The translations under genes and the position numbers were made by a program. Shown piece after piece: positions 1,845 through 48,115 of a DNA stretch of 64,000 nt. The notes beneath the pieces are model-generated. The model was not told where the DNA came from. It saw only the letters and a program-made list of their open reading frames with translations, and did not search any database. Each line of letters begins with the position of its first letter. The stretch's first letter is position 1. Source of the DNA: Epinephelus fuscoguttatus (lineage: Eukaryota > Chordata > Actinopteri > Perciformes > Serranidae); contig NC_064761.1 of the NCBI RefSeq assembly GCF_011397635.1, positions 25,647,643 to 25,711,642 on the forward strand, written 5' to 3'.

Positions 1845-3100
1845 GTTATACAAGTTTCAATACTGAAATAGGAAGGTTTTGTATCTCGCCTGAATTTTTT
1901 TTTCTTGAAAAAAGATGCTGCAGATGACTGTAATTGGGAGGTATTAGCTGTTAAACACCATGGAAACAAAGAATTAAGAGCTCATCTAGTCCAAGTTAAA
2001 ATTTCATAACAGTACTACAGAAATGGCTTTTTTACACATGTTTTTCCAAGGATATGTCTTGGCATTTCCAAAAAGGACATTTCTGAGACTCCAAAAGGAC
2101 CCTTGGTTACTGTGGTGACATACCTATAGTAAAAAGGCTGCTGTTCTTGAACGCTTCAATGTACAGTTATGATTTTGGGCTCTACTGAAGCTGACACTCA
2201 GAGGTATCCTCTCAGGTATACAGAATCACTATCAGTATTACTGACACAGAATTAAAGAAGCATAAACACTTCATAATGCATTTTTTTTACTTTATGCATG
2301 AACTTTGTGCATGAAAAAGTAAAAACGAGTTATAGTGGACAAGCAGTTTATATAAAAAGTAACAGACATCAAACTATATACAAATCTTCATGCACACAAA
2401 TTTTATATAGGCTTCATGGATTACACTTTCTAAAGTTCTCCTGAAGAAAAAACGTGTATGAAAACTTTTAGGTAAAATTAGGAGCAACTTTGTTGTCTTG
2501 ATCTTTTTCTAGGCTATATTGTAAATTACAGTACACGTGGTGTTGGACTACTCAGTAAAAGGGAGTCATAACTGCGTACACACTGTTGTGGTTTTGTTTC
2601 ATAATAGCTGGTGAAAATACGGGGGCACAGTTTTGCGAAAGAGTCGTCTCAGCGGTCATTTTGTTCCTTGTCCTTGTGTAATCTAGACACTGACTAAATC
2701 TGAGCTTCCTGTTTTGAAGGATGTTCCAATGATGACGGTGTTACACTTCTTAGTATGAATCATTTTGGGAATTCACATTTCTCTCTCATTCCCGTCTGAG
2801 GATGAGAAACTTAGATAAGAGGGATGTTTATGGAAGCGGCTCTTCCCAAACACAATCAGTGCCTGGCACGAGTTTATGAAACGGCATACTTCCAGTTCAT
2901 GTGTAGACATTGATTTATTGGTTCATAGATTCAGCTGTGTGATCACAAGAGTGGGCTGGAACACACACTGCAGTGCTGGACCAGGTGACATTAGTATAAG
3001 ATTTCCCTTTACTAAATTCCAGTGTGCTAAGGTGAATTAGGGGAGAAATAAGAACAACAGATTTCAATAAACCTGACTGTCTGACCCATAAGCCCTTTTT
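1845..3100. other. Non-coding stretch, no gene seen
   Basis: AT-rich sequence with no ORF over 60 residues and no convincing splice-bounded exon. It holds isolated GATA (AGATAAGA near 2813) and ETS-like (TTCCTG near 2704) words, but nothing ties them to a gene inside the window. It probably belongs to the decayed flank of unit 0. Confidence 0.5.
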
Positions 3101-3307
3101 TCCATGATATTGATATTGAAGGTTGTTATTGCTAAAATGTGTGTGGCCTTGATCAGATTCAAACAGTTAACAGATGTTAAAAAAATAAAAACTCGTAACT
3201 GGGAAGAGGCAGGAATTATATCACAATGACAGCTTGGCATTTTTAAACGCCTCAGCAGCAGGAAATAAAATCCTCTGCAGACAAACAAGCTTCTCTTATC
3301 CACCAAC

Positions 3308-4725
3308 ATGGTGAAAGAAAGAAAGAAGGAAAGACATTTCCGTTTAAACATACCTTGTTTTCCTGCAGCTCCTGATACCAATCCCATTGACGTGTTTCTT
3401 TCCTTTAATCCATTGTCTAGAGCTGCACTTTCTAAATTATATAGAAGCATCTCAATGCTGATATGTTCACCTCTAGATGGGATTAAGGAAGCCTGGGTAC
3501 AAGTTCTGGGACCTATAACTGAGGACCTATGGGTCTCTATTCTTTCACCAATACATAAATCCTCACTTTGCACAAGACATTGCTTATTGCATTTAAAGGT
3601 GGTCCATAGGGCCCACATGTCTAAGGTTAAGCTATCTAGCATCCACCCTGATAAAACCCCCACCTGTGACAAAAACAATGATGCCACCATATGTACTGGC
3701 TGTGCCCTAATTTTGGAAAGATATCTTCCATACCATTTCTAAAATCCTTTAAAAAAAATAGAACTAGACCCAGGGTTCCTACACAAGTATGGAAACTATG
3801 GAAAAGTATGGAAATAAATTTGATCAATTTCCAGGTATTAAAAAGTATGGAAAATTAAAAATGAAGTATGGAAAAATATTTATGTTTCCAGATTATTACC
3901 ACGTTTCTAAAATACTGTTTTCTAAAATAGAAAATTAGGTATTTCCAATGGTGGGCTAAGCACAGTTTGTGTGAGAGCAAACGTCTCAGAAAATATAACG
4001 CCCCTTTTACCTGATTGACAAGTGGTATGTCCAGTCCGCTGCCCCATGACCCTCCTCCAGCCCCCCAGGTATCAAGTTTCACTCCAACACTGCACCATCA
4101 ACAAGAAGACGAGTTTCACGTGGTTCACAATGAGTAGATGCAAATTTTTGGATGGATGGCTTGACAATACCTTATATAAACACTGGTTTGCCAAGGATTC
4201 CCAATTCACACACAGAGCTAGATGCAAGCTTTGTGCTATTGCAAGCTATTTACCAACGGTTTAGTTCGGTTCAGAATGAGTTTTTCTGAATGCACCACTC
4301 ATATCATCCCCCTCCATTGTCTAAAACAAACCAACAGAACTCGCTAGCCAGCTAAACTCCATCCATCAATAAACGTCATGCTGTTTACTAACAGTAAAAA
4401 GGTCTACAGCCCTTGACATATAAATAAAAAAAGTGTAAAACCTGACTCCATGGATGTTGTTATTCTCCATATCAAATTTTAGACATCGTGCCGAAGGAAT
4501 ATTTAAAGGAAGGAAAAAATATGGGACAGGAGGATAGGTGGGGAGTGGGAGGGAAGAGCTGTTGTATTGTAGAAGGTTACTGTCATCGCCTCAGGGTCAT
4601 GTTTGCTCTGCACACTGATGTATACTGTATGGTGCTGTGGAATGTGTCTGCCTAACCCTGGTGTTTTTTGTTTTCCTTTTTGAAAACCTTAATAAAAATA
4701 TTTTGAAATTTAAAAAATAAAGTTA
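3308..4725 (+). mobile_element. Decayed L1-type LINE, ORF2 C-terminal end and 3' tail
   Basis: An open stretch at 3308-3742 translates to the post-reverse-transcriptase C-terminal part typical of fish L1-like ORF2. Landmarks are a W-containing segment, SSLCTRHCLLHLKVVHRAH, then SKVKLSSIHPDKTPTCDK and a Cys-containing end. It is 5'-truncated and has no reverse transcriptase core. It is interrupted at about 3771-4444 by a hAT remnant. It resumes as an AT-rich 3' end carrying AATAAA-like words near 4690. An antisense ORF at 3064-3690 is a shadow of this element. Confidence 0.7.
3771..4444 (+). mobile_element. hAT-family transposon remnant inside the LINE
   Basis: The left end, cagggttcctacacaagt, and the right end, which reads CAGGTTTTACACTT on the other strand, are imperfect inverted repeats. 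Inside, a short open stretch at 4131-4264 reads MSRCKFLDGWLDNTLYKHWF then a Cys-x2-Cys pair (RCKLCAI). This resembles the N-terminal zinc-finger segment of fish hAT transposases. The rest of the transposase is missing, so the copy is dead. Target duplications are weak (actagacc versus actccatg). Confidence 0.65.
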
Positions 4726-5177
4726 CAGTAAAGAATGTTTTTAAGTTGTGATGTCTCTTCATGCAGTTCAAAGAATTCACCACTAGATGGAAACAAATAA
4801 CTTGTAATCAATATTGACTACACTGGCTTGACTTTGGCAGGCTTAGGCTGGCTGAGACATCGTTATGTGACGTTTGGGAGCTCTGAGCAACTACCCATCC
4901 ATTTTCTATACCTGTTCATCCTCTGCAGCGTCAAAAAGACCCCAGCACACACTGAGTGAGTTTCACATCAGCTGTTTTTGGGTCAGGAGGAGTCTCGGTT
5001 TCTCGGTGTGCTTATGCTCCTGTATCCTGCTGGACACTCAGATAATTACACACATTTAGACAGTCATGTTGCCAGTAACAGTCACAAACTAAATGTCTTG
5101 ACTGGCATATTAAGCCAACCTAATGACAGAAGAGGATAGAGCCAGCCCCACTTAGCTTTTTCCATTCACTCTTTTAT

Positions 5178-7622: not shown

Positions 7623-9526
7623 TCATATCTGCCTCGGCATGGGCATTACCTCTTCCATGTTAGAGATGCTGATGAGTTTGACCATCTGGTTCATCTTCTT
7701 CCTGCGCTGCAGCAGGTGGTAAAGAGACGGGGTGAACTTAGCCAGTGCCAGCAAGCAGACGATTAATACCACCACCAGCAGTATTAAGTAGATCATCACT
7801 GGAGTGTTGTTTTTAGAAGGCATTGTTTGGGTGGTGGTTGGTTGGATGCTGAAGCTGGTGGTCGTGGGCATAATTGTTGTATGCGAAGTCGTAATGGTTG
7901 TGGTTGTACTCGAAATGGTGTTGGTGGTTAAAGTTGTTGTGGGTGTTGGTGTTGAGGTGGTGGTCATGGTGGCTGGAGTTTTTGTTATGGTGTTTGTTGG
8001 TGCCTTTGGAATGGTTGTGGCTAGTGGCATGGTTGAGACAGGGGTGTTTGCTGTAGCTGACAAAGTGGTTGCTGGTGTTGTGGTAGTAACAATGGTGGTT
8101 GTTGGTTCTGCAGTTGGGAGTGCCATGGTAGTTGTGGGAGTTGTCGTGGTGGTTGTGGTTGTGGTTGTGGAGGGGAGGGTGGGGCAGATAAGTTGATCTT
8201 CTGGTAATGATTTTATTTCTTGTCCTTTTAGATCTTCTGGATACTCACAGACAGCAGGAGACACAAGCTTGTCAGAGTTCGTCTTCATCCAGAGGTGAAG
8301 CTCTATCAGATTACAGTCACAGTGCCAAGGGTTGTCATTGAGGTAAAGTTTTCTCAGTTTTGTTAAAGGCTCAAAAATATCCCCAGGAAGCGTCTGGAGG
8401 TCGTTGTGAGCTAGCTTGAGTGTGATCAGTGATTGTAGCTTTTCAAACACATCTACGTCCAGTGACTTTATCTTGTTGTACTGTAGATTCAGGTCTGTGA
8501 GCCTCTCAGGACCTTCAAAGTTCTCAGCATAAAAGGTGACAAATTGATTCTTAGACAGATCTAACTTCTTGACTTTCTTCAGAGGGCTGAATATTCCTTT
8601 AGGAAGAGCGCTGAGATTGTTCTGACTCAGGCTTAACTCTGTCAATTTAGGCATTTCTCCAAAAGCACAGGTGGTAGACTCGTCAGTTTATTCTTCTGTA
8701 GGGTCAGTGTTTTAAGCAGAGGGAAGCCAACAAAGAATCCTTCAGGTAAACTAGTCAGGTGATTACTATCCAGGCACACCTTACTTAGTTTGTCTTTATG
8801 TGGAAATAGATTAGGTGACAATTCTGCTATTTTGTTTCCCTGCAAGCCAATTTCCTTTAGGTTTGGCAGATTCTGCAAAATATCTTCAGGAATGGTGGTC
8901 AGTTGATTCTCATAAAGCCGTAGCGTCTGTAGTTTGTTTAGGTTTGAGAACCAGCTGGTAGATACAGCGGAGAGGTTGTTTTTAGCCAAATGGAGCACTG
9001 TGAGGTTGTCAAGATCATCAAAAGTCCCATCTTCAATCGATTCTATCTCGTTTATGTGTAAAAGGAGCTCTCGTAATTTTGTAAGGCCCTCAAACAAGCC
9101 GTTCTCCAGACTACGGAGCTTGTTAAGCTTTATTACAAGCTTCTCCAGGTTGCTGAGGTCTTTAAAGACTCCCACTGGTATCGACTTTAATGGAGTGCTG
9201 GAGATCTCAATATGCTTGAGTTCTACCAAACCTTCGAAAGCTCCTGGCTCGATAGATGTCGTGGTAGTGCTCAAGAACTCCACCTTTTCAAGATGGGGGT
9301 TTTCAACAAAGGCTGCTTTGGGGATTGTGTCAATTAGGCTTTCCACAAAGAAAACTTCTGTCACACCTGGTTTTAGGATGCGTGGGATTTCTGTTGTAGA
9401 GGTACTGAAAACAGCCTGGTTCTCTTTGGGGCAGTCTGTCTCCTTTTCACATTGTTTTTGAGTTAATGAGGACTCAAACAGTAAAGACAGAAAAAGAACC
9501 ACGATTTCTCCTCTTGCCATGTTCAT
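7623..9526 (-). CDS. LRR transmembrane glycoprotein copy 1 (CPN2/GP5-like), one frameshift
   Basis: Predicted type I surface LRR protein, about 634 residues once a single-base frameshift is allowed for. Visible in order: a signal peptide (residues 1-23, core VVLFLSLLF); an N-terminal Cys cap (QCEKETDC); about 14 LRRs of the LxxLxLxxNxLxxLPxxxF type (about 60-395); a C-terminal cap beginning NPWHCDCNL (about 398-450); a Thr/Pro-rich mucin-like stalk (about 453-575); a membrane segment (about 578-598, IYLILLVVVLIVCLLAL); and a 36-residue basic tail. LRR architecture and C-cap fit the CPN2 / LRRC15 / GP5 group, and gp5 lies upstream on the same strand. The frame breaks near 8655, where an A-run is four long against five in copy 2; the halves are 8642-9526 and 7623-8654. 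The ATG at 9526 follows a possible acceptor at 9530-9531, so a 5' non-coding exon is likely. The break could be a sequencing error or a real lesion. Confidence 0.8.
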
Positions 9527-11029
9527 TCACTATAAAAAATTTTTTAAAAAAAATCATAAATTATAAAATGGAGTAGATTAGATTTAGATCTTGTATACAT
9601 ATTAGAAGGCAGTTTATTGTATGATTTGTTTTTTACTCTCCTGTGATAATATATAAGTGGTGAAATATCAGTAACATAAAGGCTTTGCTTTGTCACAATA
9701 ATATTTACTGTAAACAAATAATTTGGTTCAAGAGATGGAGAGTGATTGCACTCAACTTCAGGCTATCAGAAAGAATTCATTTTGTATTAAATAACAGAAT
9801 TTAATTTGATTGTCACTGAACTGAAGGTTTACTCAACTATTACGAACATGCACAGTACTCCTAGTACTCCTCATTGAACATATGAAGACAAGAATGAATG
9901 CAATGCTTGGTTAACAGATGGTTACAAAGAGATGTAGTCTAGCGTATGAAATTGTGACAAGATGGATGACTTTGTAGGCACAAGGAAGACCACCAAAGGG
10001 TTAAAAAAATCATTGACGATTACCTGTTATAATGAATGCACCTTCAGCAGCAGTTTTCCTCAGTTCTGACTGCAGCGTCCAACCGAGTTGTGGAGGAGTA
10101 GGGGTTGATGGGAGCGTCAGCAGGAGAGAGCTGAGGAAAGAGGAAAAAGAGAAAGAGGACGATATGGATTTCTTTGTAATTAATAGCCTCGGTCAGGGGG
10201 AAGTGTGTGACGCCCCACCACCTGTCGTAAAGATCTTGATCTGGCATGTGCATTTGATTTGAAAGTGAGTAAAAGAACAGTGCAACTTACTTTTTTTAAA
10301 CACAGCTTTTTGCAGGACACATAGTGATGAGGTCATGTATCTAGTTTTGACTATGTAAGATAATAACTAAGATTTGATGATGATGAAACAAAGTCAACTT
10401 TGCTTTAGCCACCAGCATAAATTCATATTTTAATGTAAAACCATGTCTCTCAATGTATTTCATGATATCTCCTGCTGTGCAGACACAAGGTGACTAGCGA
10501 GAGTGTGAAAGTGATCACTGTGCACCAGGCCCTTTGACATTGTAGCAGAAGTGACATAAGCATAATGAAATCCAAATATAAGTGGTCAGCTGGAGATTCA
10601 TGATAGAAACAGGTGTGAACGATGTCTCAGCTGTACATTTGTGTTACGATCACCAAAACACTTCCTAAAACCAAATGTAAACAGGGTCATGACGGCATCA
10701 GTGTTACATTGAGACTATTTCATGACCTGTTAAGAACTATTGGCTATTGCGCTTCCCCTGTCTAATTCTCCCCTATTTTGAACCTGTGCCTCAGTCTGTT
10801 CTCTTTTACAGCACACATGAAGAGGAACACTGGCTGCTCATTTTGAGCCACTGAATTCAAAAGTTGACTTATTGTTCTAGCTGTTAAAGCTACAGCAATC
10901 ATTATCCTTAGCCTATGATTAATTTCATCCTGCTATCTCCCTGCCTAACAATCCTCAAACAGTATGGTATAAGTAAGTAACGATCAGCACTCTGTTAACC
11001 AGGACAGCATGAAGTTTTGCAGAACTTAC

Positions 11030-11172
11030 CTCCAGTAGAGGCTGACGATAAAATGGACAGAGACCTTGAGTTGGTGATATCTTTGTAACTTCCTCCTTTT
11101 TTGCCTGATGTAGCGGTATGAGAGCAAGAAAACAAGAAGAAACTCCACCCTTGGGGGAATTTTGCTTATCTG
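11030..11172 (-). promoter_or_regulatory. Candidate 5' exon end and GATA/ETS promoter of LRR copy 1
   Basis: Read on the minus strand, a strong donor (CTGGAG|gtaagtt, exon end at 11030) is preceded by an ETS core (acttcct at 11088-11094, AGGAAGT on the minus strand) and a GATA site (cttatct at 11165-11171, AGATAAG on the minus strand). A second donor (AACAG|gtaatc, exon end at 10024) could close a second untranslated exon. No transcript evidence is available. Confidence 0.4.
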
Positions 11173-11949
11173 AATGCATGTGAGGAGACATGAAAACAAG
11201 TGTCAGGATTTAATCACTTCACTTTTTCCTTCTGTTTGACCCCACCCCTGCAGTATGATAGCAATCCTTTTTTTTTCTCTTTCCGTGTAATTTGTAGTGT
11301 CATTTTGTGCAAGACAGAAAACACTTCAAACATGAGTAAACATTGTTTTAGTGGCTCATATATTCAGCTGTGTCGTCCAGAGCTCCCTTTGCTCTCTGAC
11401 CCATAAATCATCTTGATTATGTTAACAATATTGCAGGTTCTCATTGGTGAAATGTAACATGTGGTCTTGGTCAGATGGAAAAAAATTTTTTTTTTAGAAA
11501 GATGCATTTGTAATTGCTGATGGGAGAGGCAGGAATAACATCATCACCACATCTTATTTTTACACACCACAGCAGCAGGAAATCTAATCCTCTATAGACA
11601 AACAAGCATCTCGTATCCACCAACAAGGAAGAAAGACATTTGCACATAATGCATTTTATTCAGACTGATTAAGCAAAAGTTACAACAAATGTTTATCATC
11701 ACTAGAGAGAAACAAATAACTAAATAACTTGACTACATTGGCCTGACTTTGCTTTATGAAGCTTAATATTACACACTACATAGGTTTTGCTCATATGGTA
11801 AACACAGATTAATATAATATGTAAAACTAACAGACTGTGAGACATTATTATGTATCACTTTTTGCGTGACGCGTTAAGACAAGGACATAGGAAGTAATCA
11901 TTAATTGGTAATTTATTTGATTTTTGTAAAACATATTCACTATTTTCAT

Positions 11950-12290
11950 CATTGAGTAATTTGCCAAATATTTTCCTGATTAACTATTTGTTTCATGAAA
12001 TGTCAAAAAAACACGCATCACAACCTCCAAGAGCCCAAAGTGACGTCTTCAAATTGCTTGATTTGTCCGACCAACAATCCAAAACTCAAAAAATATTTGA
12101 TTTATTATTATACAAGACAAATAAAAGCAGCTAAACTTTACATTTGAGAAGCTGAATCTAGCAAATGCCTGGCATTTCTGACAGAAAAATCACTGAAATT
12201 ATTGATAAATTCTCAAAATAGGTTTACATTTTTTTTTTCGATTTATCAATTGATTGATCCAAGCAGCACCTTATAGCTCTACAAATATCA
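11950..12290. mobile_element. Fish MITE copy within unit 1
   Basis: AT-rich sequence with the layout of the very common fish element whose ends carry cgattaatcg-like words and whose core reads 'caaagtgacgtcttcaaattgc'. The same copy sits at the same place in units 2 and 3, so it was present before the triplication. Confidence 0.55.
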
Positions 12291-12513
12291 TAAAGTTACA
12301 ACCAAAAATATGTTTAAAAAAAAAAGCTAATTTCAGCTGTTTGTGAAGCTTACGTACTGTATGATATGCTTAACTGTATTATATAATATTACATATGTAT
12401 TGTCTTACCATAGCCTAAGTCTTTGCTCTTTAAAATATCCTATAGCTTTAGCTTTGTCACAATATTTTAAATCCCATATTCTGACCGTCCTCACATAACA
12501 CTTGAAGATACAA

Positions 12514-12770
12514 CTTAAAGGGGTACTAAACCCCCCTCTCTGGGCATTACTCCGCCCACAGCTTGATTTAAAAAAATTCAGAAAAGATAGGCGAAGCTGA
12601 GGGAGGGAGGGAGGGGGGGCAGACAATCAGCTGAGGAAGGGGGTGGAGTGAAGATTGTCCCTCACTGCAGGGAGAGGAGAAAGGCCTTCCCCGGAGGTCA
12701 GGCCTCTTTACCTGGTCCCTCTCCTCCACACTTTGGCTTATTTTCACCCAGCCCAGCACTGGTACCTTGG
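12514..12770. mobile_element. Truncated TTAA-type MITE at the unit 1/unit 2 junction
   Basis: The segment begins with TTAA then aggggtactaaacccc, resembling the terminus of fish TTAA-inserting MITEs. It runs through a G-rich (gggagg)n tract and ends abruptly where the Thr-stalk code of LRR copy 2 starts. It replaces the sequence that in copy 1 encodes the membrane segment and tail. The same junction recurs near 17596-17850. Confidence 0.55.
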
Positions 12771-13212
12771 TGGTGGTCGGTTGTGTGCTGAAGCTGGTGG
12801 TCGTGGCATAATTGTTGTATGCATAGTCGTAATGGTTGTGGTTGTACTCAAAGTGGTGTTGGTGGATAAGTTGTTGTGGGTGTTGGTGTTGAGGTGGTGG
12901 TCATGGTGGCTGGAGTTTTTGTTATGGTGTTTGTTGGTACCTTTGGAATGGTTGTAGGCATAATTGTTGTAGGCGTAGTCGTAATGGTTGTGGGCGTACT
13001 CAAAGTGGTTGTGGTGGGTGTACTTGTTAAAGTTGTTGTGGGTGTTGGTGTTGTGGTGGTGGTCATGGTGGCTAGAGCTGTTGTTATAGTATTTGTTGGT
13101 GCCTTTGTAATGGTTGTGGCTAGTGGCATGGTTGAGCCAGGGGTGTTTGTTGTAGCTGACAAAGTGGTTGCTGGTGTTGTGGTAGTAACGATGGTGGTTT
13201 TTGGTTCTGTAG

Positions 13213-14616
13213 TTAGGAGTGCTTTGGGAGTTGTGGTGGTGGTGATGATGGTTGTGATTGTGGGGGGAGGGTGGGGCAGATAAGTTGATCTTCTGGTAAT
13301 GATTTTATTTCTTGTCCTTTTAGATCTTCTGGATACTCACAGACAGCAGGAGACACAAGCTTGTCAGAGTTCGTCTTCATCCAGAGGTGAAGCTCTATCA
13401 GATTACAGTCACAGTGCCAAGGGTTGTCATTGAGGTAAAGTTTTCTCAGTTTTGTTAAAGGCTCAAAAATATCCCCAGGAAGCGTCTGGAGGTCGTTGTG
13501 AGCTAGCTTGAGTGTGATCAGTGATTGTAGCTTTTCAAACACATCTACGTCCAGTGACTTTATCTTGTTGTACTGTAGATTCAGGTCTGTGAGCCTCTCA
13601 GGACCTTCAAAGTTCTCAGCATAAAAGGTGACAAATTGATTCTTAGACAGATCTAACTTCTTGACTTTCTTCAGAGGGCTGAATATTCCTTTAGGAAGAG
13701 CGCTGAGATTGTTCTGACTCAGGCTTAACTCTGTCAATTTAGGCATTTCTCCAAAAAGCACAGGTGGTAGACTCGTCAGTTTATTCTTCTGTAGGGTCAG
13801 TGTTTTAAGCAGAGGGAAGCCAACAAAGAATCCTTCAGGTAAACTAGTCAGGTGATTACTATCCAGGCACACCTTACTTAGTTTGTCTTTATGTGGAAAT
13901 AGATTAGGTGACAATTCTGCTATTTTGTTTCCTGCAAGCCAATTTCCTTTAGGTTTGGCAGATTCTGCAAAATATCTTCAGGAATGGTGGTCAGTTGATT
14001 CTCATAAAGCCGTAAAGGCCTGTAGTTTGTTTAGGTTTGAGAACCAGCTGGTAGATACAGCGGAGAGGTTGTTTTTAGCCAAATGGAGCACTGTGAGGTT
14101 GTCGAGATCATCAAAAGTGCCATCTTCAATCGATTCTATCTCGTTCATGTGTAAAAGGAGCTCTCGTAATTTTGTAAGGTCCTCAAACAAGCCGTTCTCC
14201 AGACTACGGAGCTTGTTAAGCTTTATTACAAGCTTCTCCAGGTTGCTGAGGTCTTTAAAGACTCCCACTGGTATCGACTTTAATGGAGTGCTGGAGATCT
14301 CAATATGCTTGAGGTCTACCAAACCTTCGAAAGCTCCTGGCTCGATAGATGTCGTGGTAGTGCTCAAGAACTCCACCTTTTCAAGATGGGGGTTTTCAAC
14401 AAAGGCTGCTTTGGGGATTGTGTCAATTAGGCTTTCCACAAAGAAAACTTCTGTCACACCTGGTTTTAGGATGCGTGGGATTTCTGTTGTAGAGATACTG
14501 AAAACAGCCTGGGTCTCTTTGGGGCAGTCTGTCTCCTCACATTGTTTTTGAGTTAATGAGGACTCAGACAGTAAAGACAGAAAAAGAACCACGATTTCTC
14601 CTCTTGCCATGTTCAT
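13213..14616 (-). pseudogene. LRR glycoprotein copy 2, broken
   Basis: Same signal peptide, LRR array and NPWHCDC C-cap as copy 1, but the frame is broken twice. One extra base near 14014 (gtaaaggcc where copies 1 and 3 have gtagcgtc) leads straight to a stop, ending the first part at 14002 (204 residues). One base missing near 13931 (tttcctgc against tttccctgc) follows. The second part (13213-13914) is open and keeps FGEMPKL, intact where copies 1 and 3 are shifted. A further indel at the start of the stalk gives a tail reading PPQSQPSSPPPQLPKHS then a stop. Thr-rich code continues out of frame at 12848-13162. The membrane segment and tail are missing, replaced by a MITE fragment. Probably a pseudogene, unless indels are assembly errors; even then it would encode a membrane-less protein. 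Confidence 0.75.
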
Positions 14617-16113
14617 TCACTATAAAAAAAATTTAAAAAAAATCATAAATTATAAAATGGAGTAGATTAGATTTAGATCTTGTATACATATTAGAAGGCA
14701 GTTTATTGTATGATTTGTTTTTTACTCTCCTGTGATAATATATAAGTGGTGAAATATCAGTAACATAAAGGCTTTGCTTTGTCACAATAATATTTACTGT
14801 AAACAAATAATTTGGTTCAAGAGATGGAGAGTGATTGCACTCAACTTCATGCTATCAGAAAGAATTCATTTTGTATTAAATAACAGAATTTAATTTGATT
14901 GTCACTGAACTGAAGGTTTACTCAACTATTACGAACATGCACAGTACTCTAGTACTCCTCATTGAACATATGAAGACAAGAATGAATGCAATGCTTGGTT
15001 AACAGATGGTTACAAAGAGATGTAGTCTAGCATATGAAATTGTGACAAGATGGATGACTTTGTAGGCACAAGGAAGACCACCAAAGGGTTAAAAAAATCA
15101 TTGACGATTACCTGTTATAATGAATGCACCTTCAGCAGCAGTTTTCCTCAGTTCTGACTGCAGCGTCCAACCGAGTTGTGGAGGAGTAGGGGTTGATGGG
15201 AGCGTCAGCAGGAGAGAGCTGAGGAAAGAGGAAAAGAGAAAGAGGACGATATGGATTTCTTTGTAATTAATAGCCTCGGTCAGGGGGAAGTGTGTGACGC
15301 CCCACCACCTGTCGTAAAGATCTTGATCTGGCATGTGCATTTGATTTGAAAGTGAGTAAAAGAACAGTGCAACTTACTTTTTTTAAACACAGCTTTTTGC
15401 AGGACACATAGTGATGAGGTCATGTATCTAGTTTTGACTATGTAAGATAATAACTAAGATTTGATGATGATGAAACAAAGTCAACTTTGCTTTAGCCACC
15501 AGCATAAATTCATATTTTAATGTAAAACCATGTCTCTCAATGTATTTCATGATATCTCCTGCTGTGCAGACACAAGGTGACTAGCAAGAGTGTGAAAGTG
15601 ATCACTGTGCACCAGGCCCTTTGACATTGTAGCAGAAGTGACATAAACATAATGAAATCCAAATATAAGTGGTCAGCTGGAGATTCATGATAGAAACAGG
15701 TGTGAACGATGTCTCAGCTGTACATTTGTGTTACGATCACCAAAACACTTCCTAAAACCAAATGTAAACAGGGTCATGACGGCATCAGTGTTACATTGAG
15801 ACTATTTCATGACCTGTTAAGAACTATTGGCTATTGCGCTTCCCTGTCTAATTCTCCCTATTTTGAACCTGTGCCTCAGTCTGTTCTCTTTACAGCACAC
15901 ATGAAGAGGAACACTGGCTGCTCATTTTGAGCCACTGAATTCAAAAGTTGACTTATTGTTCTAGCTGTTAAAGCTACAGCAATCATTATCCTTAGCCTAT
16001 GATTAATTTCATCCTGCTATCTCCCTGCCTAACAATCCTCAAACAGTATGGTATAAGTAAGTAACGATCAGCACTCTGTTAACCAGGACAGCATGAAGTT
16101 TTGCAGAACTTAC

Positions 16114-16255
16114 CTCCAGTAGAAGCTGACGATAAAATGGACAGAGACCTTGAGTTGGTGATATCTTTGTAATTTCCTCCTTTTTTGCCTGATGTAGCGG
16201 TATGAGAGCAAGAAAACAAGAAGAAACTCCACCCTTGGGGGAATTTTGCTTATCT
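16114..16255 (-). promoter_or_regulatory. Candidate 5' exon end and GATA/ETS promoter of LRR copy 2
   Basis: Equivalent of 11030-11172: donor CTGGAG|gtaagtt with exon end at 16114, an ETS core (atttcct at 16172-16178) and a GATA site (cttatct at 16249-16255). The ETS flank has changed by one base from unit 1, but the GGAA core is kept. Confidence 0.4.
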
Positions 16256-17035
16256 GAATGCATGTGAGGAGACATGAAAACAAGTGTCAGGATTTAATCA
16301 CTTCACTTTTTCCTTCTGTTTGACCCCACCCCTGCAGTATGATAGCAATCCTTTTTTTTTCTCTTTCCGTGTAATTTGTAGTGTCATTTTGTGCAAGACA
16401 GAAAACACTTCAAACATGAGTAAACATTGTTTTAGTGGCTCATATATTCAGCTGTGTCGTCCAGAGCTCCCTTTGCTCTCTGACCCATAAATCATCTTGA
16501 TTATGTTAACAATATTGCAGGTTCTCATTGGTGAAATGTAACATGTGGTCTTGGTCAGATGGAAAAAAATTTTTTTTTTAGAAAGATGCATTTGTAATTG
16601 CTGATGGGAGAGGCAGGAATAACATCATCACCACATCTTATTTTTACACACCACAGCAGCAGAAATCTAATCCTCTATAGACAAACAAGCATCTCGTATC
16701 CACCAACAAGGAAGAAAGACATTTGCACATAATGCATTTTATTCAGACTGATTAAGCAAAAGTTACAACAAATGTTTATCATCACTAGAGAGAAACAAAT
16801 AACTAAATAACTTGACTACATTGGCCTGACTTTGCTTTATGAAGCTTAATATTACACACTACATAGGTTTTGCTCATATGGTAAACACAGATTAATATAA
16901 TATGTAAAACTAACAGACTGTGAGACATTATTATGTATCACTTTTTGCGTGACGCAGCGTTAAGACAAGGACATAGGAAGTAATCATTAATTGGTAATTT
17001 ATTTGATTTTTGTAAAACATATTCACTATTTTCAT

Positions 17036-17376
17036 CATTGAGTAATTTGCCAAATATTTTCCTGATTAACTATTTGTTTCATGAAATGTCAAAAAAACAC
17101 GCATCACAACCTCCAAGAGCCCAAAGTGACGTCTTCAAATTGCTTGATTTGTCCGACCAACAATCCAAAACTCAAAAAATATTTGATTTATTATTATACA
17201 AGACAAATAAAAGCAGCTAAACTTTACATTTGAGAAGCTGAATCTAGCAAATGCCTGGCATTTCTGACAGAAAAATCACTGAAATTATTGATAAATTCTC
17301 AAAATAGGTTTACATTTTTTTTTTCGATTTATCAATTGATTGATCCAAGCAGCACCTTATAGCTCTACAAATATCA
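17036..17376. mobile_element. Fish MITE copy within unit 2
   Basis: Orthologous position and near-identical sequence to the MITE at about 11950-12290, carried along by the duplication. Confidence 0.5.
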
Positions 17377-17595
17377 TAAAGTTACAACCAAAAATATGTT
17401 TAAAAAAAAAAGCTAATTTCAGCTGTTTGTGAAGCTTTACGTACTGTATGATATGCTTAACTGTATTATATAATATTACATATGTATTGTCTTACCATAG
17501 CCTAAGTCTTTGCTCTTTAAAATATCCTATAGCTTTAGCTTTGTCACAATATTTTAAATCCCATATTCTGACTGTCCTCACATAACACTTGAAGA

Positions 17596-17850
17596 TACAG
17601 GGGAACTAAACCCCCCTCTCTGGGCATTACTCCGCCCACAGCTTGATTTAAAAAAATTCAGAAAAGATAGGCGAAGCTGAGGGAGGGAGGGAGGGAGGGG
17701 GGGCAGACAATCAGCTGAGGAAGGGGGTGGAGTGAAGATTGTCCCTCACTGCAGGGAGAGGAGAAAGGCCTTCCCCGGAGGTCAGGCCTCTTTACCTGGT
17801 CCCTCTCCTCCACACTTTGGCTTATTTTCACCCAGCCCAGCACTGGTACC
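17596..17850. mobile_element. Truncated TTAA-type MITE at the unit 2/unit 3 junction
   Basis: Same junction element as at 12514-12770. Here the left end reads gatacaggggaactaaacccc, so the TTAA and a few neighbouring bases are lost. The stalk frame of copy 3 runs on into it: the ORF at 17658-17936 fuses Thr-rich code to MITE-encoded residues beginning VPVLGWVKISQS. Confidence 0.5.
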
Positions 17851-18299
17851 TTGGTGGTGGTCGGTTGTGTGCTGAAGCTGGTGGTCGTGGGCATAATTGT
17901 TGTATGCATAGTCGTAATGGTTGTGGTTGTACTCAAAGTGGTGTTGGTGGATAAGTTGTTGTGGGTGTTGGTGTTGAGGTGGTGGTCATGGTGGCTGGAG
18001 TTTTTGTTATGGTGTTTGTTGGTACCTTTGGAATGGTTGTAGGCATAATTGTTGTAGGCGTAGTCGTAATGGTTGTGGGCGCATACTCAAAGTGGTTGTG
18101 GTGGGTGTACTTGTTAAAGTTGTTGTGGGTGTTGGTGTTGTGGTGGTGGTCATGGTGGCTAGAGCTGTTGTTATAGTATTTGTTGGTGCCTTTGTAATGG
18201 TTGTGGCTAGTGGCATGGTTGAGCCAGGGGTGTTTGTTGTAGCTGACAAAGTGGTTGCTGGTGTTGTGGTAGTAACGATGGTGGTTTTTGGTTCTGTAG

Positions 18300-19702
18300 T
18301 TAGGAGTGCTTTGGGAGTTGTGGTGGTGGTGATGATGGTTGTGATTGTGGGGGGAGGGTGGGGCAGATAAGTTGATCTTCTGGTAATGATTTTATTTCTT
18401 GTCCTTTTAGATCTTCTGGATACTCACAGACAGCAGGAGACACAAGCTTGTCAGAGTTCGTCTTCATCCAGAGGTGAAGCTCTATCAGATTACAGTCACA
18501 GTGCCAAGGGTTGTCATTGAGGTAAAGTTTTCTCAGTTTTGTTAAAGGCTCAAAAATATCCCCAGGGAGCGTCTGGAGGTCGTTGTGAGCTAGCTTGAGT
18601 GTGATCAGTGATTGTAGCTTTTCAAACACATCTACGTCCAGTGACTTTATCTTGTTGTACTGTAGATTCAGGTCTGTGAGCCTCTCAGGACCTTCAAAGT
18701 TCTCAGCATAAAAGGTGACAAATTGATTCTTAGACAGATCTAACTTCTTGACTTTCTTCAGAGGGCTGAATATTCCTTTAGGAAGAGCGCTGAGATTGTT
18801 CTGACTCAGGCTTAACTCTGTCAATTTAGGCATTTCTCCAAAAGCACAGGTGGTAGACTCGTCAGTTTATTCTTCTGTAGGGTCAGTGTTTTAAGCAGAG
18901 GGAAGCCAACAAAGAATCCTTCAGGTAAACTAGTCAGGTGATTACTATCCAGGCACACCTTACTTAGTTTGTCTTTATGTGGAAATAGATTAGGTGACAA
19001 TTCTGCTATTTTGTTTCCCTGCAAGCCAATTTCCTTTAGGTTTGGCAGATTCTGCAAAATATCTTCAGGAATGGTGGTCAGTTGATTCTCATAAAGCCGT
19101 AGCGTCTGTAGTTTGTTTAGGTTTGAGAACCAGCTGGTAGATACAGCGGAGAGGTTGTTTTTAGCCAAATGGAGCACTGTGAGGTTGTCGAGATCATCAA
19201 AAGTGCCATCTTCAATCGATTCTATCTCGTTCATGTGTAAAAGGAGCTCTCGTAATTTTGTAAGGTCCTCAAACAAGCCGTTCTCCAGACTACGGAGCTT
19301 GTTAAGCTTTATTACAAGCTTCTCCAGGTTGCTGAGGTCTTTAAAGACTCCCACTGGTATCGACTTTAATGGAGTGCTGGAGATCTCAATATGCTTGAGG
19401 TCTACCAAACCTTCGAAAGCTCCTGGCTCGATAGATGTCGTGGTAGTGCTCATGAACTCCACCTTTTCAAGATGGGGGTTTTCAACAAAGGCTGCTTTGG
19501 GGATTGTGTCAATTAGGCTTTCCACAAAGAAAACTTCTGTCACACCTGGTTTTAGGATGCGTGGGATTTCTGTTGTAGAGGTACTGAAAACAGCCTGGTT
19601 CTCTTTGGGGCAGTCTGTCTCCTCACATTGTTTTTGAGTTAATGAGGACTCAAACAGTAAAGACAGAAAAAGAACCACGATTTCTCCTCTTGCCATGTTC
19701 AT
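18300..19702 (-). pseudogene. LRR glycoprotein copy 3, frameshifted and membrane-less
   Basis: Signal peptide, N-cap, full LRR array and NPWHCDC C-cap are present, but one base is missing at the same A-run as in copy 1 (near 18840). The frame therefore splits into 18821-19702 (293 residues) and 18300-18833 (177 residues). The stalk start carries the same indel as copy 2, giving the same short tail (PPQSQP...PKHS, stop). Further Thr-rich code (18007-18249) lies out of frame. There is no membrane segment or cytoplasmic tail. If the A-run break were an error, the product would be a secreted LRR protein of about 470 residues. As written, it is a pseudogene. Confidence 0.75.
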
Positions 19703-21197
19703 TCACTATAAAAAAAATTTTAAAAAAATTATAAAATGGAGTAGATTAGATTTAGATCTTGTATACATATTAGAAGGCAGTTTATTGTATGATTTGTTTT
19801 TTACTCTCCTGTGATAATATATAAGTGGTGAAATATCAGTAACATAAAGGCTTTGCTTTGTCACAATAATATTTACTGTAAACAAATAATTTGGTTCAAG
19901 AGATGGAGAGTGATTGCACTCAACTTCATGCTATCAGAAAGAATTCATTTTGTATTAAATAACAGAATTTAATTTGATTGTCACTGAACTGAAGGTTTAC
20001 TCAACTATTACGAACATGCACAGTACTCCTAGTACTCCTCATTGAACATATGAAGACAAGAATGAATGCAATGCTTGGTTAACAGATGGTTACAAAGAGA
20101 TGTAGTCTAGCGTATGAAATTGTGACAAGATGGATGACTTTGTAGGCACAAGGAAGACCACCAAAGGGTTAAAAAAACCATTGACGATTACCTGTTATAA
20201 TGAATGCACCTTCAGCAGCAGTTTTCCTCAGTTCTGACTGCAGCGTCCAACCGAGTTGTGGAGGAGTAGGGGTTGATGGGAGCGTCAGCAGGAGAGAGCT
20301 GAGGAAAGAGGAAAAAGAGAAAGAGGACGATATGGATTTCTTTGTAATTAATAGCCTCAGTCAGGGGGAAGTGTGTGACGCCCCACCACCTGTCGTAAAG
20401 ATCTTGATCTGGCATGTGCATTTGATTTGAAAGTGAGTAAAAGAACAGTGCAACTTACTTTTTTTAAACACAGCTTTTTGCAGGACACATAGTGATGAGG
20501 TCATGTATCTAGTTTTGACTATGTAAGATAATAACTAAGATTTGATGATGATGAAACAAAGTCAACTTTGCTTTAGCCACCAGCATAAATTCATATTTTA
20601 ATGTAAAACCATGTCTCTCAATGTATTTCATGATATCTCCTGCTGTGCAGACACAAGGTGACTAGCAAGAGTGTGAAAGTGATCACTGTGCACCAGGCCC
20701 TTTGACATTGTAGCAGAAGTGACATAAACATAATGAAATCCAAATATAAGTGGTCAGCTGGAGATTCATGATAGAAACAGGTGTGAACGATGTCTCAGCT
20801 GTACATTTGTGTTACGATCACCAAAACACTTCCTAAAACCAAATGTAAACAGGGTCATGACGGCATCAGTGTTACATTGAGACTATTTCATGACCTGTTA
20901 AGAACTATTGGCTATTGCGCTTCCCCTGTCTAATTCTCCCCTATTTTGAACCTGTGCCTCAGTCTGTTCTCTTTTACAGCGCACATGAAGAGGAACACTG
21001 GCTGCTCATTTTGAGCCACTGAATTCAAAAGTTGACTTATTGTTCTAGCTGTTAAAGCTACAGCAATCATTATCCTTAGCCTATGATTAATTTCATCCTG
21101 CTATCTCCCTGCCTAACAATCCTCAAACAGTATGGTATAAGTAAGTAACGATCAGCACTCTGTTAACCAGGACAGCATGAAGTTTTGCAGAACTTAC

Positions 21198-21339
21198 CTC
21201 CAGTAGAGGCTGACGATAAAATGGACAGAGACCTTGAGTTGGTGATATCTTTGTAATTTCCTCCTTTTTTGCCTGATGTAGCGGTATGAGAGCAAGAAAA
21301 CAAGAAGAAGCCCCACCCTTGGGGGAATTTTGCTTATCT
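21198..21339 (-). promoter_or_regulatory. Candidate 5' exon end and GATA/ETS promoter of LRR copy 3
   Basis: Same layout as in units 1 and 2: exon end at 21198 with a gtaagtt donor, ETS core at 21256-21262 and GATA site at 21333-21339, all read on the minus strand. Confidence 0.4.
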
Positions 21340-22093
21340 GAATGCATGTGAGGAGACATGAAAACAAGTGTCAGGATTTAATCACTTCACTTTTTCCTTC
21401 CGTTTGAAACCACCCCTGCAGTATGACTTCCAATCCCCGTGATTACCCTGTGTGTGTGTTTGGCGGGGGGGGGGGCTTGGTCAGATGGAAAAACAATTTT
21501 AAAAAAAAAGATGCATTTGTAATTCCTGATGGGAGAGGCAGGAATAACATCATCACCACATCTTATTTTTACACACCACAGCAGCAGGAAATCTAATCCT
21601 CTGTCGACAAACAAGCATCTCGTATCCACCAACAAGGAAGAAAGACATTTGCCATTTGCACATAATGCATTTTATTCAGACTGATTAAGCAAAGGTTACA
21701 ACAAACATTTATGATCACTAGAGAGAAACAAATAACTTGACTACATTGGCTTGACTTTGCTTTATGAAGCTTAATATTACACACTACATAGGTTTTGCTC
21801 ATATGGTAAACACAGATTAACTAACAGACTGTGAGACATTATTATGTATCACTTTTTGCGTGACGCATTAAGACAAGGACATAGGAACTAATCATTAATT
21901 GGTAATTTATTTGATTTTTGTAAAACATATTCACTATTTTCATCATTGAGTAATTTGCCAAATATTTTCCTGATTAACTATTTGTTTCATGAAATGTCAA
22001 AAAAACACGCATCACAACCTCCAAGAGCCCAAAGTGATGTCTTCAAATTGCTTGATTTGTCCGACCAACAATCCAAAACTCAAAAAATATTTG

Positions 22094-22617
22094 ATTTATT
22101 ATTATACAAGACAAATAAAAGCAGCTAAACTTTACATTTGAGAAGCTGAATCTAGCAAATGCCTGGCATTTCTGACAGAAAAATCACTGAAATTATTGAT
22201 AAATTCTCAAAATAGGTTTACATTTTTTTTTTCGATTTATCAATTGATTGATCCAAGCAGCACCTTATAGCTCTACAAATAACATAAAGTTACAACCAAA
22301 AATATGTTTTAAAAAAAGCTAATTTCAGCTGTTTGTGAAGCTTACGTACTGTATGATATGCTTAACTGTATTATATAATATTACATATGTATTGTCTTAC
22401 CATAGCCTAAGTCTTTGCTCTTTAAAATATCCTTTAGCTTTAGCTTTGTCACAATATTTTAAATCCCATATTCTGACCGTCCTCACATAACACTTGAAGA
22501 TACAACTTAGCACAACATCAAGAAAACTTACACCCCAGAGAAATCGTTTATAAACTGCAACCTCGGGAAAAGGACGCTTAATCTTGATCTCTTGTGCACC
22601 TAGCCTGACAAAGTGTT
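22094..22617 (-). other. gp5 3' flank overlapping unit 3
   Basis: Downstream of the gp5 stop, the unique sequence is only about 110 bp before unit 3 begins. The first AATAAA on the minus strand is at 22095-22100, inside the unit, so the gp5 transcript probably ends within the duplicated block. Confidence 0.35.
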
Positions 22618-25181
22618 TCATAACCCTGGAGGATGTTTACACTCAGTCTTCAGTTCATTCACGGTCTTGTTGAGGCGATACATGTAAAACAGTGCACCAA
22701 GAATGAGGACCAAGCCTGTGACCACAAGAAGGATGTGAGAAAACACGAGAAGTCCGGTCATGGTCATATCTGAGGGCAGAAACCACACATACACCCAGGC
22801 CTTGTGAGGGTTGTGGTGAACAAACTCGGGCCCCTGTTCAATCACCAACATTTCATAGAAAGGAGGTGAGGGAGTCTCAGGAATGGAGAGAAACTCCTTG
22901 TTAGGCAGGGTAGGGGTGGGAGTTTGGAGAGTTGTTGGTAGGATCGTGGTATGTAAAGATGGTTGTGAAGATGGAGTGGTGGATTGTTGAGTAGCTCCTT
23001 GAATGATGGTAGATGTTTTTGGGGACGGTGTAGTTGTAGAAGCTACAACAGTTGTTTGTCCACGAGTTGAAGTGGTGTGGAATGTTTTTATTGGCTTGTG
23101 TGTCAAAAAATAACTTGGCGTGACTTTCATAGTGTCGCAAAAGTTGAACTCCTCATCACGCAGTGAGCCAACAGTACGGAGCAGTTGGTACGTTGGACTG
23201 TGACATATCACATCCTGTCCCTCAAGAACCACATGCTCATTATGTCTTATCCATTTTGCAATACCTCTGATACTACAAGTACAGTCCCAGGGGTTGCCAC
23301 TCAGTCCAAGAGCCTTCAAAGCTGTATTTGACAAGAAACTATCTCCTGGAAGAGTCATAAGCTGGTTATTCTTCAAATCAATTGACACAACCCTGCTAAG
23401 GTCCTGGAAGATGTCATCTGGAAGGCTCTGCAGCTTGTTATCATTAAGAAGCAGTATGCCAAGTGTGGTTAGTCCGGAGAACAGCCGAGGATGTAGATAA
23501 TGAAGGTTGTTGGATCTCAGTGAGAGTTTCTCAAGCTTGGGAAGGCAGCAGAAGAGGTCTGAGGGCAACTCCCTCAGATGGTCATTTAAATGGAAGTTAA
23601 GCCTCAGGAGTCCAGACATGTTGGCAAACAAATTTCCAGGAACAGTGGTGAGGTTAGTGGCATACAAATAAAAGTCAATAATGTCAGGCATGTGTCCCAT
23701 CAGCTGGTCTGGCAGAGATAACAGGGGGTTGTTGTAAATGGTTAGCTTTCTCAGCTTTGGCATGTTGTAGAAGCTCTTTTCTGGGATAGCCTGAAGTCGG
23801 TTGGAGGACAGGGTGAGGACCCTCAGGTTCTTCAGTGACCAGAACACCTGAGGTGAAAGGCTGGTAATGTAGTTTTGATGGATTTTCAGCTCCTCAAGGT
23901 TGATAAGTTTGTCAAAAATCCCAGGTTCTAGCACCTCTAGCTCGTTGTTATAGAGCATGAGCTGGTTGAGATTAGTCAAGGAGTGAAAGATGGTAGGTGG
24001 AAGCTTCTTTATGGAGTTCCTGCCGAGGTTCAGAAAGATAAGGCTGGACAGTTTATCGAAAACATCTGAAGAAGGACTACTCAGTTTGTTCCGGCTCAGG
24101 TCCAGATCCAGTAACCCGACAAGTCCTTTAAACATATCCGGGGCTATGGTCCCCAACTGGTTCCCATCTAAATGCAGCTGCTCCAGAGTGGTCATTGGAC
24201 TGAAAACCCGCGCAGGGAGGGTAGAGAGATCATTGTACGACAGCTTGACAGACTTGAGCTGTGGAGCCACATGGAAGGCTCTGGGATGGATTGTGTGTAA
24301 ATGACTGTGAGTCAGACTGAAACGCAGCAAGAGGTCCCTGTTTGCCAAGCTCTGCTCATTTATGACGTTCATTATTGTGCCGTTAAGCTGCAGCAGGTAT
24401 GTGTGGACAGGCAGCTGCTTTGGTATATCTGTGATGGTGTCACCAACACACTTCACAGCACCTTTAAAGTTACACAAGCAGCTGCTGGGGCAGAACATGT
24501 TGTAGGTAAGGTGTGGCAGTGTGAAGAGGATGAGTATCGTCCACAAGGCGCCTGCAAAGTTGAAATAACACACACAAAGACACATTTTGACACATGAGAT
24601 TCAATCGGAAATAGGGCTGGCATGACATGGCATCTTTTTGACAAATGATTTACACTCATGACAGTGTAGGGACGTGCAAAGACAGAGTCTGTAATCATGA
24701 CTGCACAAGATTGTACAAGAAGAGCAACTACACACGGACAAGCATTGGTAGAGGGAGACAAAGTGTGAACAGAAAGAAAGGCAAATGATGTATTTACATA
24801 TTATAAGATGTGTATTATTAGCATGATATCAGTGTGTCATTTTTGAATATCATCGTTATCGCCAATACACGAATAGCCCTAATTTGAAATTAAGTTTGTC
24901 CCATAATATCACCCCAAACAGCAGTGTATAGTAATGATCTTTAACTGTGTATGCAAAAGGCCAACATTCTTCTTCAACTCAAATTTTATCAAGTCAATTT
25001 TTAATTCAAATCTGGACTCCAATTCTTGATATAATTCTCAAATAATAATAATAAAAACATAAAGAAAAAATATTTAAGATATTTTTTTCTGCTCTTAAAT
25101 AATAGTCAAAAGACCAAACCTGACTTGTGGTAAAAACAAAACAAGTTGAAATATATACCAACCTCTGAAGTGCGAATCCAT
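22618..25181 (-). CDS. gp5: Platelet/thrombocyte glycoprotein V
   Basis: Two coding exons, 25163-25181 (19 nt) and 22618-24551 (1934 nt), give 651 codons, 650 residues plus stop. The short first exon is inferred from an ATG, a gt donor after AGAG, and exact frame with the acceptor ttgcag at 24552-24557; it supplies the start of the signal peptide (MDSHFRGALWTILILF). Then come an LRRNT cap (CPSSCLC, residues 27-33), about 15 LRRs, an LRRCT cap (NPWDCTC), a Thr/Ser/Pro-rich stalk, a membrane segment (LLVFSHILLVVTGLVLILG) and a short tail. The repeat with NMSGLLRLNFHLNDHLRELP matches the odd mid-array repeat of mammalian GP5. In mammals GP5 is part of the GPIb-IX-V von Willebrand factor receptor on platelets, and fish thrombocytes should use it likewise. 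Human GP5 is 560 residues; the extra length here is mainly stalk. Opening at an ATG inside the intron (24585) would give a poorer leader. Confidence 0.85.
24552..25162 (-). other. gp5: gp5 intron 1
   Basis: 611-bp intron between the 19-nt first coding exon and the main exon. It has donor gttggt and acceptor ttgcag. An ORF at 24453-24761 overlaps it and is not supported. Confidence 0.65.
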
Positions 25182-39014: not shown

Positions 39015-39063
<49 letters not shown>

Positions 39064-48000: not shown

Positions 48001-48062
48001 TGTGAGTATTTCATTTTAAATCTCCGTCCCACTAGTTTTTATATCCTCCTTAGGCACATGGG

Positions 48063-48115
<53 letters not shown>

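What the first reader, a model, noticed from the sequence alone, without database searches (positions are those of the whole stretch)
7623..22508. Young tandem triplication of an LRR surface-receptor gene beside gp5
Three head-to-tail units of about 5.09 kb lie directly downstream of gp5 on the same strand. Near-identical non-coding DNA shows the duplications are recent. Only the copy farthest from gp5 keeps the membrane segment. A species- or lineage-specific expansion of thrombocyte-type LRR receptors would be of interest for haemostasis or immunity in fish.
Basis: partly seen in the sequence, partly recalled or inferred. Interest (0 to 1): 0.7.

Follow-up and report, generated by a model that had tools for sequence, protein, structure and literature searches.

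The report
Tandem cpn2/lrrc15-like gene array beside gp5
Next to a platelet-glycoprotein-like gene in what looks like a fish genome, a related leucine-rich-repeat gene is written three times in a row; the duplication cut off the membrane anchor of two copies, and the middle copy looks like a recombinant of the outer two, so its reality and the health of all three copies still need checking in raw reads.

Summary
In detail: three head-to-tail units (offsets 5,090 and 5,085 bp) lie directly downstream of gp5 on the same strand, without gaps, with nearly identical non-coding DNA; only the distal copy keeps the transmembrane segment. (2) TM loss has a clear cause: the breakpoint fell in the Thr-rich stalk and joined it to about 250 bp of filler; a shared 7-bp difference also ends copies 2 and 3 just after the C-cap. 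(3) The middle unit is a mosaic: gene end like copy 3, upstream end like copy 1. Unequal crossover predicts this, but so does one extra turn around an assembly loop; its private one-base indels (seven of seven deletions in homopolymer runs) hint at consensus error. At least two copies are well supported; the third is not proven. The gene sits in the known Cpn2-Lrrc15-Gp5 cluster, so 'thrombocyte-type receptor expansion' is not supported. Recency is uncertain: copies 1 and 3 differ by 0.5-0.6% in the core, 1.4% in distal upstream DNA, 10.8% in the stalk. Modest interest.

The parts
7623..9526 (-). Copy 1 coding exon: hydrophobic, signal-like N-terminus (by eye), LRRs, C-cap, Thr-rich stalk, TM (VMIYLILLVVVLIVCLLAL), short tail. 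Frame broken by one missing base at 8660/8661.
   Evidence: ORFs 8642-9526 and 7623-8687; alignment; hydropathy; LRR families
7623..7829 (-). TM segment, tail and adjoining stalk, found only in copy 1
   Evidence: no counterpart at 12769 or 17853
7830..12517 (-). Unit 1 (from the stalk breakpoint to the upstream breakpoint)
12518..12768 (.). Filler 1 (251 bp) at the unit 1/unit 2 junction, absent between unit 3 and gp5
12769..17598 (-). Unit 2 (mosaic: gene end like unit 3, upstream end like unit 1)
13213..14616 (-). Copy 2 coding exon, LRR part; frame broken at 13930 (-1) and about 14014 (+1 with neighbouring changes); open at the site broken in copies 1 and 3; ends at the PKHS stop
   Evidence: ORFs 14002-14616 and 13213-13977
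17599..17852 (.). Filler 2 (254 bp), like filler 1 apart from a 7-bp indel at its edge, a 4-bp (GAGG) indel and a substitution
17853..22509 (-). Unit 3, nearest gp5; lacks about 160 bp present in units 1 and 2 (near 21468) and has other private indels
18300..19702 (-). Copy 3 coding exon, LRR part; same one-base loss as copy 1 (18839/18840); ends at the PKHS stop
   Evidence: ORFs 18821-19702 and 18300-18866
22618..24600 (-). gp5-like ORF (stop to stop, 660 aa), open throughout; its stop lies 109 bp from the array breakpoint
2898..4836 (.). Older diverged copy of the upstream block (2898-2940, 3077-3322, 4777-4836 are collinear with 11331-11373, 11392-11636, 11696-11751; 71-86%)

Best explanation
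A cpn2/lrrc15-like LRR gene next to gp5 was tandemly duplicated by a break inside its Thr-rich stalk joined, through about 250 bp of filler, to a break 109 bp past the gp5 stop codon. The daughter gene (copy 3) kept upstream DNA, N-terminus, LRRs and caps but lost the TM and tail. The core was later kept similar between copies, probably by gene conversion. An unequal crossover between copy 3 and copy 1 then made the mosaic middle copy. SHOWN: repeat structure, filler, breakpoints, mosaic, TM only in copy 1, frame breaks as written. INFERRED: gene conversion; crossover rather than assembly loop; and that the ancestor encoded a stalked type I membrane protein while the daughters, where their frames are open in life, give a secreted LRR ectodomain, a plasma-CPN2-like form. 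If the frame breaks are real, the array is a set of fresh pseudogenes.
For: Same filler at both internal junctions and none beside gp5. Mosaic: of 79 variable substitution sites (11250-11515 left out), 45 group 2 with 3, 23 group 1 with 2 and 11 are private to 2; the 68 two-against-one sites of the first two kinds are split by position, with 0 of 2,000 shuffles reaching the observed maximum chi-square; without the stalk 35 sites, 2 of 2,000. Structural markers agree: 2 and 3 share the filler end, an extra stalk repeat, and 7-bp, 9-bp and 3-bp differences from 1; 1 and 2 share the ~160-bp stretch and the 7-, 8- and 14-bp states that differ in 3. Heterogeneous u1-u3 divergence. LRRC15 is the best solved relative; caps most CPN2-like (recalled); Cpn2, Gp5 and Lrrc15 are in tandem in mammals (PMC2235866, passages).
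Against: The same mosaic arises from one surplus traversal of an assembly loop. Unit 2 carries 10 private one-base indels against 11 private substitutions; unit 3 has 0 against 7 left of 11230 (it has one 2-bp and one 7-bp indel there). Whole unit 2 against left unit 3 gives Fisher p = 0.03; like for like on the left p = 0.05, and 0.02 or 0.12 with other ways of counting, so this is suggestive only. Seven of the 10 are deletions, all seven in runs of 2-5 bases. No copy has an open frame as written. Core and distal upstream differ only modestly (Fisher p = 0.010). Sites against the mosaic: 7 of 51 two-against-one substitutions left of 11230 group 1 with 2, and 1 of 46 right of it groups 2 with 3 (the right-hand count includes an ambiguously aligned stretch). 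The best break moves with the site set (9761-10010 with the stalk, 11089-11142 without).
Confidence: 0.5

Rival explanations
1. Two real tandem copies; the middle unit is an assembly artefact (repeat loop walked twice, perhaps with allelic reads, and poorly polished).
For: The order L1R1-L3R1-L3R3 is exactly what looping through a near-identical core gives. Private one-base homopolymer deletions gather in unit 2. False duplications are widespread in assemblies (PMC9516828, passages).
Against: No gap in the array. Fillers 1 and 2 differ by a 7-bp and a 4-bp indel. Units 2 and 3 have similar numbers of private substitutions left of 11230 (9, three of them in one cluster, and 7), as real copies or alleles would.
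Confidence: 0.38
2. The array is non-functional (compatible with either copy number): the gene, or at least copies 1 and 3, was already frame-broken, and the duplication is neutral.
For: Copies 1 and 3 share the one-base loss; all three ORFs are broken. The 7 u1-u3 coding substitutions are 4 nonsynonymous and 3 synonymous, from the proteins printed and the sites, so no sign of constraint.
Against: No substitution makes a stop in the LRR part: each copy is open piecewise. Copy 2 is open at the site broken in 1 and 3. The shared loss lies in a T5 run, a usual place for consensus error (general knowledge).
Confidence: 0.35
3. All three copies are functional thrombocyte/immune receptors expanded for adaptation.
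For: Proximity to gp5; low core divergence.
Against: Frame breaks, TM missing in two copies, better scores with LRRC15/CPN2 than with GP5.
Confidence: 0.04

Closest known systems
CPN2 (carboxypeptidase N regulatory subunit)
   Same: LRR ectodomain; N-terminal stretch scores 180 with it (GP5 140, LRRC15 131, LRG1 85) and C-cap 130 (LRG1 101, LRRC15 88, GP5 62) (human sequences recalled); neighbour of Gp5 in mammals (PMC2235866)
   Different: Copy 1 has a Thr-rich stalk and TM; mammalian CPN2 is a secreted plasma protein (recalled)
LRRC15 (Lib)
   Same: Best solved-structure match (9oib, E 5.3e-60 and 1.1e-57); best long alignment of all four array pieces tested (recalled sequence); membrane LRR protein (recalled) of the same cluster
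   Different: Only about 35% identical; C-cap less similar than CPN2's; the window gp5 also has LRRC15 as best solved match
GP5 (platelet glycoprotein V)
   Same: Same LRR subcluster (PMC2235866); adjacent gene
   Different: Array copies match recalled GP5 less well (copy 1 N part 106 bits against 140 LRRC15 and 135 CPN2); gp5 itself is the separate open ORF at 22618-24600

Membership tests
Cpn2-Lrrc15-Gp5 LRR subcluster | extracellular LRR domain with caps | tested here: met
   LRR_8 in all 6 array pieces; LRRCT passed E 0.001 in 1 of 6 (copy 3, E 7.7e-4); no N-cap family was listed
Cpn2-Lrrc15-Gp5 LRR subcluster | tandem neighbour of gp5, same strand | tested here: met
   mammalian tandem arrangement in PMC2235866
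CPN2 ortholog | reciprocal best match / gene tree with CPN2 apart from LRRC15 | tested here: inconclusive
   caps favour CPN2 but the long alignments score LRRC15 slightly higher in 4 of 4 array pieces (four recalled human sequences); no vertebrate gene set for a tree
CPN2 ortholog | secreted, no TM | tested here: not met
   copy 1 has a TM; copies 2 and 3 lack one, but by truncation
GP5 / GPIb-IX-V thrombocyte receptor | closest match GP5 | tested here: not met
   GP5 third of four in all 4 array pieces (recalled sequences)
GP5 / GPIb-IX-V thrombocyte receptor | thrombocyte expression | not testable with these tools
   no RNA data
recent segmental tandem duplication | uniform low divergence across the unit | tested here: not met
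   u1-u3: stalk 10.75%, LRR coding 0.52%, proximal upstream 0.58%, short switch section 1.40% (2 of 143), distal upstream 1.44% (11233-11515 not counted)

The most novel reading that the evidence does not exclude
One duplication event whose breakpoint fell in the stalk turned a membrane-anchored cpn2/lrrc15-like LRR protein into a secreted one, and unequal crossover is amplifying the secreted form beside its anchored parent: a soluble partner or decoy born in one step.
Probability: 0.2. Interest if true: 0.5.

Novelty: new member of a known kind. Interest (0 to 1): 0.3.

Why it matters
If real, it is a readable example of how a tandem duplication can convert a membrane LRR protein into a secreted one and how unequal crossover adds a copy. 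It is also a cautionary case: a perfectly mosaic middle copy with private one-base indels is what a mis-assembled repeat looks like, so copy-number claims in LRR clusters need read-level support.

Tried and rejected
Intron or programmed frameshift over the shared one-base loss: rejected by inspection, since the LRR sequence is continuous across it in copy 2 (LPPVLFGEMPKL) and the site is not a canonical slippery heptamer (recalled rule). Filler as a known RNA-derived repeat: no Rfam match at gathering threshold in the whole window; no other match longer than 32 bp in the window beyond the two fillers, so its origin is unknown. A fourth coding copy to the left: tblastn of five window LRR pieces found nothing convincing left of 7.5 kb (best E 0.55), though an old upstream block is there. 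Phage search with the LRR DNA: no match, and uninformative for an animal gene. Paper searches showed no title or abstract start about such an array, but the listings were capped (20 of 58; 20 of 29; 12 of 47); I read passages of only two papers, PMC2235866 and PMC9516828. A codon count for the part before the break was out of frame (it printed a stop; it gave 5:2) and was discarded; the 4:3 count is from the printed proteins. Signal peptide: the 19-residue scan found no peak in the N pieces; a shorter window finds IVVLFLSLLF at 3.29, so the signal peptide is by eye. No structure was predicted.
Full report
The observation. Self-alignment of the window shows three head-to-tail units with offsets 5,090 and 5,085 bp (7859/12949/18034), on the minus strand, ending at 22509, 109 bp short of the end of the gp5 ORF. 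The window holds no N. The main match is 8.5 kb at 98.4%, far beyond chance.

Anatomy. Copy 1 (7623-9526) encodes a hydrophobic, signal-like N-terminus, LRRs, a C-cap with four cysteines, a long Thr-rich stalk, a TM and a short tail, in two overlapping open frames. The signal peptide is by eye: a 19-residue hydropathy scan does not reach the TM threshold there, a 10-residue window gives 3.29. Pfam lists only LRR families. Just before the ATG each copy has a pyrimidine-rich stretch ending in ATAG that looks like a splice acceptor, which would fit a 5' non-coding exon plus one coding exon (inference). A TM-like peak exists only in copy 1. In copies 2 and 3 the stalk, which carries an extra repeat (12798-12959 against 12949-13120, 85%), runs into a ~250-bp filler; a shared 7-bp deletion relative to copy 1 ends their frame at CPTLPPQSQPSSPPPQLPKHS, just after the C-cap.

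Breakpoints. Unit 1 runs ...GATACAACTTA (to 12517) into filler; unit 3 runs from the same bases (to 22509) into the gp5 3' flank; unit 2 has lost 7 bp across that edge and enters filler at 17599. At the other side the stalk of copy 1 continues into the TM while copies 2 and 3 meet filler, with TTGG/GTGG-rich similarity at the join. This is a tandem duplication with extra DNA at the junction. It explains why only the distal copy kept its membrane segment: the duplicated segment began inside the stalk.

The middle unit is a mosaic. Left of about 11.1 kb (unit 1 coordinates) unit 2 mostly shares unit 3's states; right of it, unit 1's. With the ambiguous stretch 11250-11515 left out, 79 substitution sites vary: 45 join 2 with 3, 23 join 1 with 2, 11 are private to unit 2. 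A maximum chi-square scan of the 68 joint sites exceeds 2,000 of 2,000 shuffles; without the stalk (35 sites) 2 of 2,000 reach it. The best break falls at 9761-10010 with the stalk and at 11089-11142 without it, so the switch point is only bracketed. Sites against: 7 left of 11230 join 1 with 2 (expected as changes private to unit 3), and 1 right of it joins 2 with 3. The order L1R1-L3R1-L3R3 is the product of an unequal crossover in a two-copy array, but equally of an assembler walking the loop once too often. Against artefact: the two fillers differ by 7-bp and 4-bp indels, and units 2 and 3 have similar private substitutions on the left (9, three of them clustered with an indel, and 7). For artefact: unit 2 has ten private one-base indels, seven of them deletions, all seven in runs of 2-5 bases and four of seven in runs of 4 or more, where only 9.5% of unit 1's bases lie. 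Unit 3 has no one-base indel among its private left-side changes, but two longer ones. The contrast is suggestive, not strong: Fisher p = 0.03 for whole unit 2 against left unit 3, and 0.05, 0.02 or 0.12 for left-only counts. Allelic reads mixed into unit 2 could explain both sides. False duplication is widespread in earlier vertebrate assemblies (PMC9516828, abstract and other passages). At least two copies are well supported (inference): the stalk ends of 1 and 3 differ at 33 of 307 sites, only one leads to a TM, and the other leads through filler to the upstream DNA of its neighbour.

Frames. Copies 1 and 3 lack one base in a T5 run (8660/8661 and 18839/18840) that copy 2 has; copy 2 has its own two breaks (13930 and about 14014). 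The gp5 ORF next door, 1,980 bp with five runs of 5 or more, is open, so there is no sign of generally poor base quality. Whether the T4 form is a consensus error or a true shared lesion cannot be told from the sequence.

Age. u1-u3 differences are 7 of 1,350 in the LRR coding part, 9 of 1,550 proximal upstream, 2 of 143 in the switch section, 14 of 973 distal upstream (coding plus proximal against distal, Fisher p = 0.010) and 33 of 307 in the stalk. A single young age does not fit all sections; conversion in the core, plus a fast-changing stalk repeat, does (inference). An older block (71-86%) of the same upstream DNA at 2898-4836 points to an earlier duplication; no coding part of it was found in the window.

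Identity. The best solved relative of the array copies is LRRC15; it is also that of the gp5 ORF, and no CPN2 or GP5 chain stands among the 60 rows shown in each of those calls. Against recalled human sequences, long alignments score LRRC15 slightly above CPN2 in 4 of 4 array pieces, GP5 third and LRG1 fourth; the N-terminal stretch and C-cap alone score highest with CPN2 (180 against 140 GP5; 130 against 101 LRG1). The neighbour ORF scores highest with GP5 over its length (239 bits, LRRC15 213, CPN2 177), its N-terminal part equally with GP5 and LRRC15 (175, 174), and its C-cap lowest with GP5 (50; CPN2 78), so 'gp5' is likely but rests on recalled sequences. In mammals Cpn2, Gp5 and Lrrc15 form one subcluster and lie in tandem (PMC2235866, passages). 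This is therefore the expected gp5-lrrc15/cpn2 neighbourhood, not an expansion of gp5-type receptors. Orthology to cpn2 alone is not settled.

Verdict. A tandem array of at least two copies of a known gene family, with a neat breakpoint history; the third copy and the function of any copy remain open.

Noticed in passing
49449-51078: Complete-looking Tc1/mariner-type element: 386-aa open transposase frame (HTH_Tnp_Tc3_2, DDE_3) between ~272-bp inverted repeats 98.9% alike, probably young.
   Followed up: partly
37888-55977 (+): Scattered exons of a ccdc50-like gene; 2 of 5 pieces sent match CCDC50_N (E 2e-7 and 7e-4, the second below Pfam's cut-off), the others by recall only.
   Followed up: partly
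2898-4836: Diverged copy of the array's upstream block, split by about 1.45 kb that holds a 157-aa open frame resembling a LINE RT tail (recalled; no Pfam match).
   Followed up: partly
26181-27465: Imperfect inverted repeat, arms of about 280 bp, 68% alike over 319 columns.
   Followed up: no
12518-12768 and 17599-17852: Filler of unknown origin containing GGGGTACTAAACCCC and a GAGG run; may be a fragment of a dispersed repeat, not testable without the genome.
   Followed up: partly
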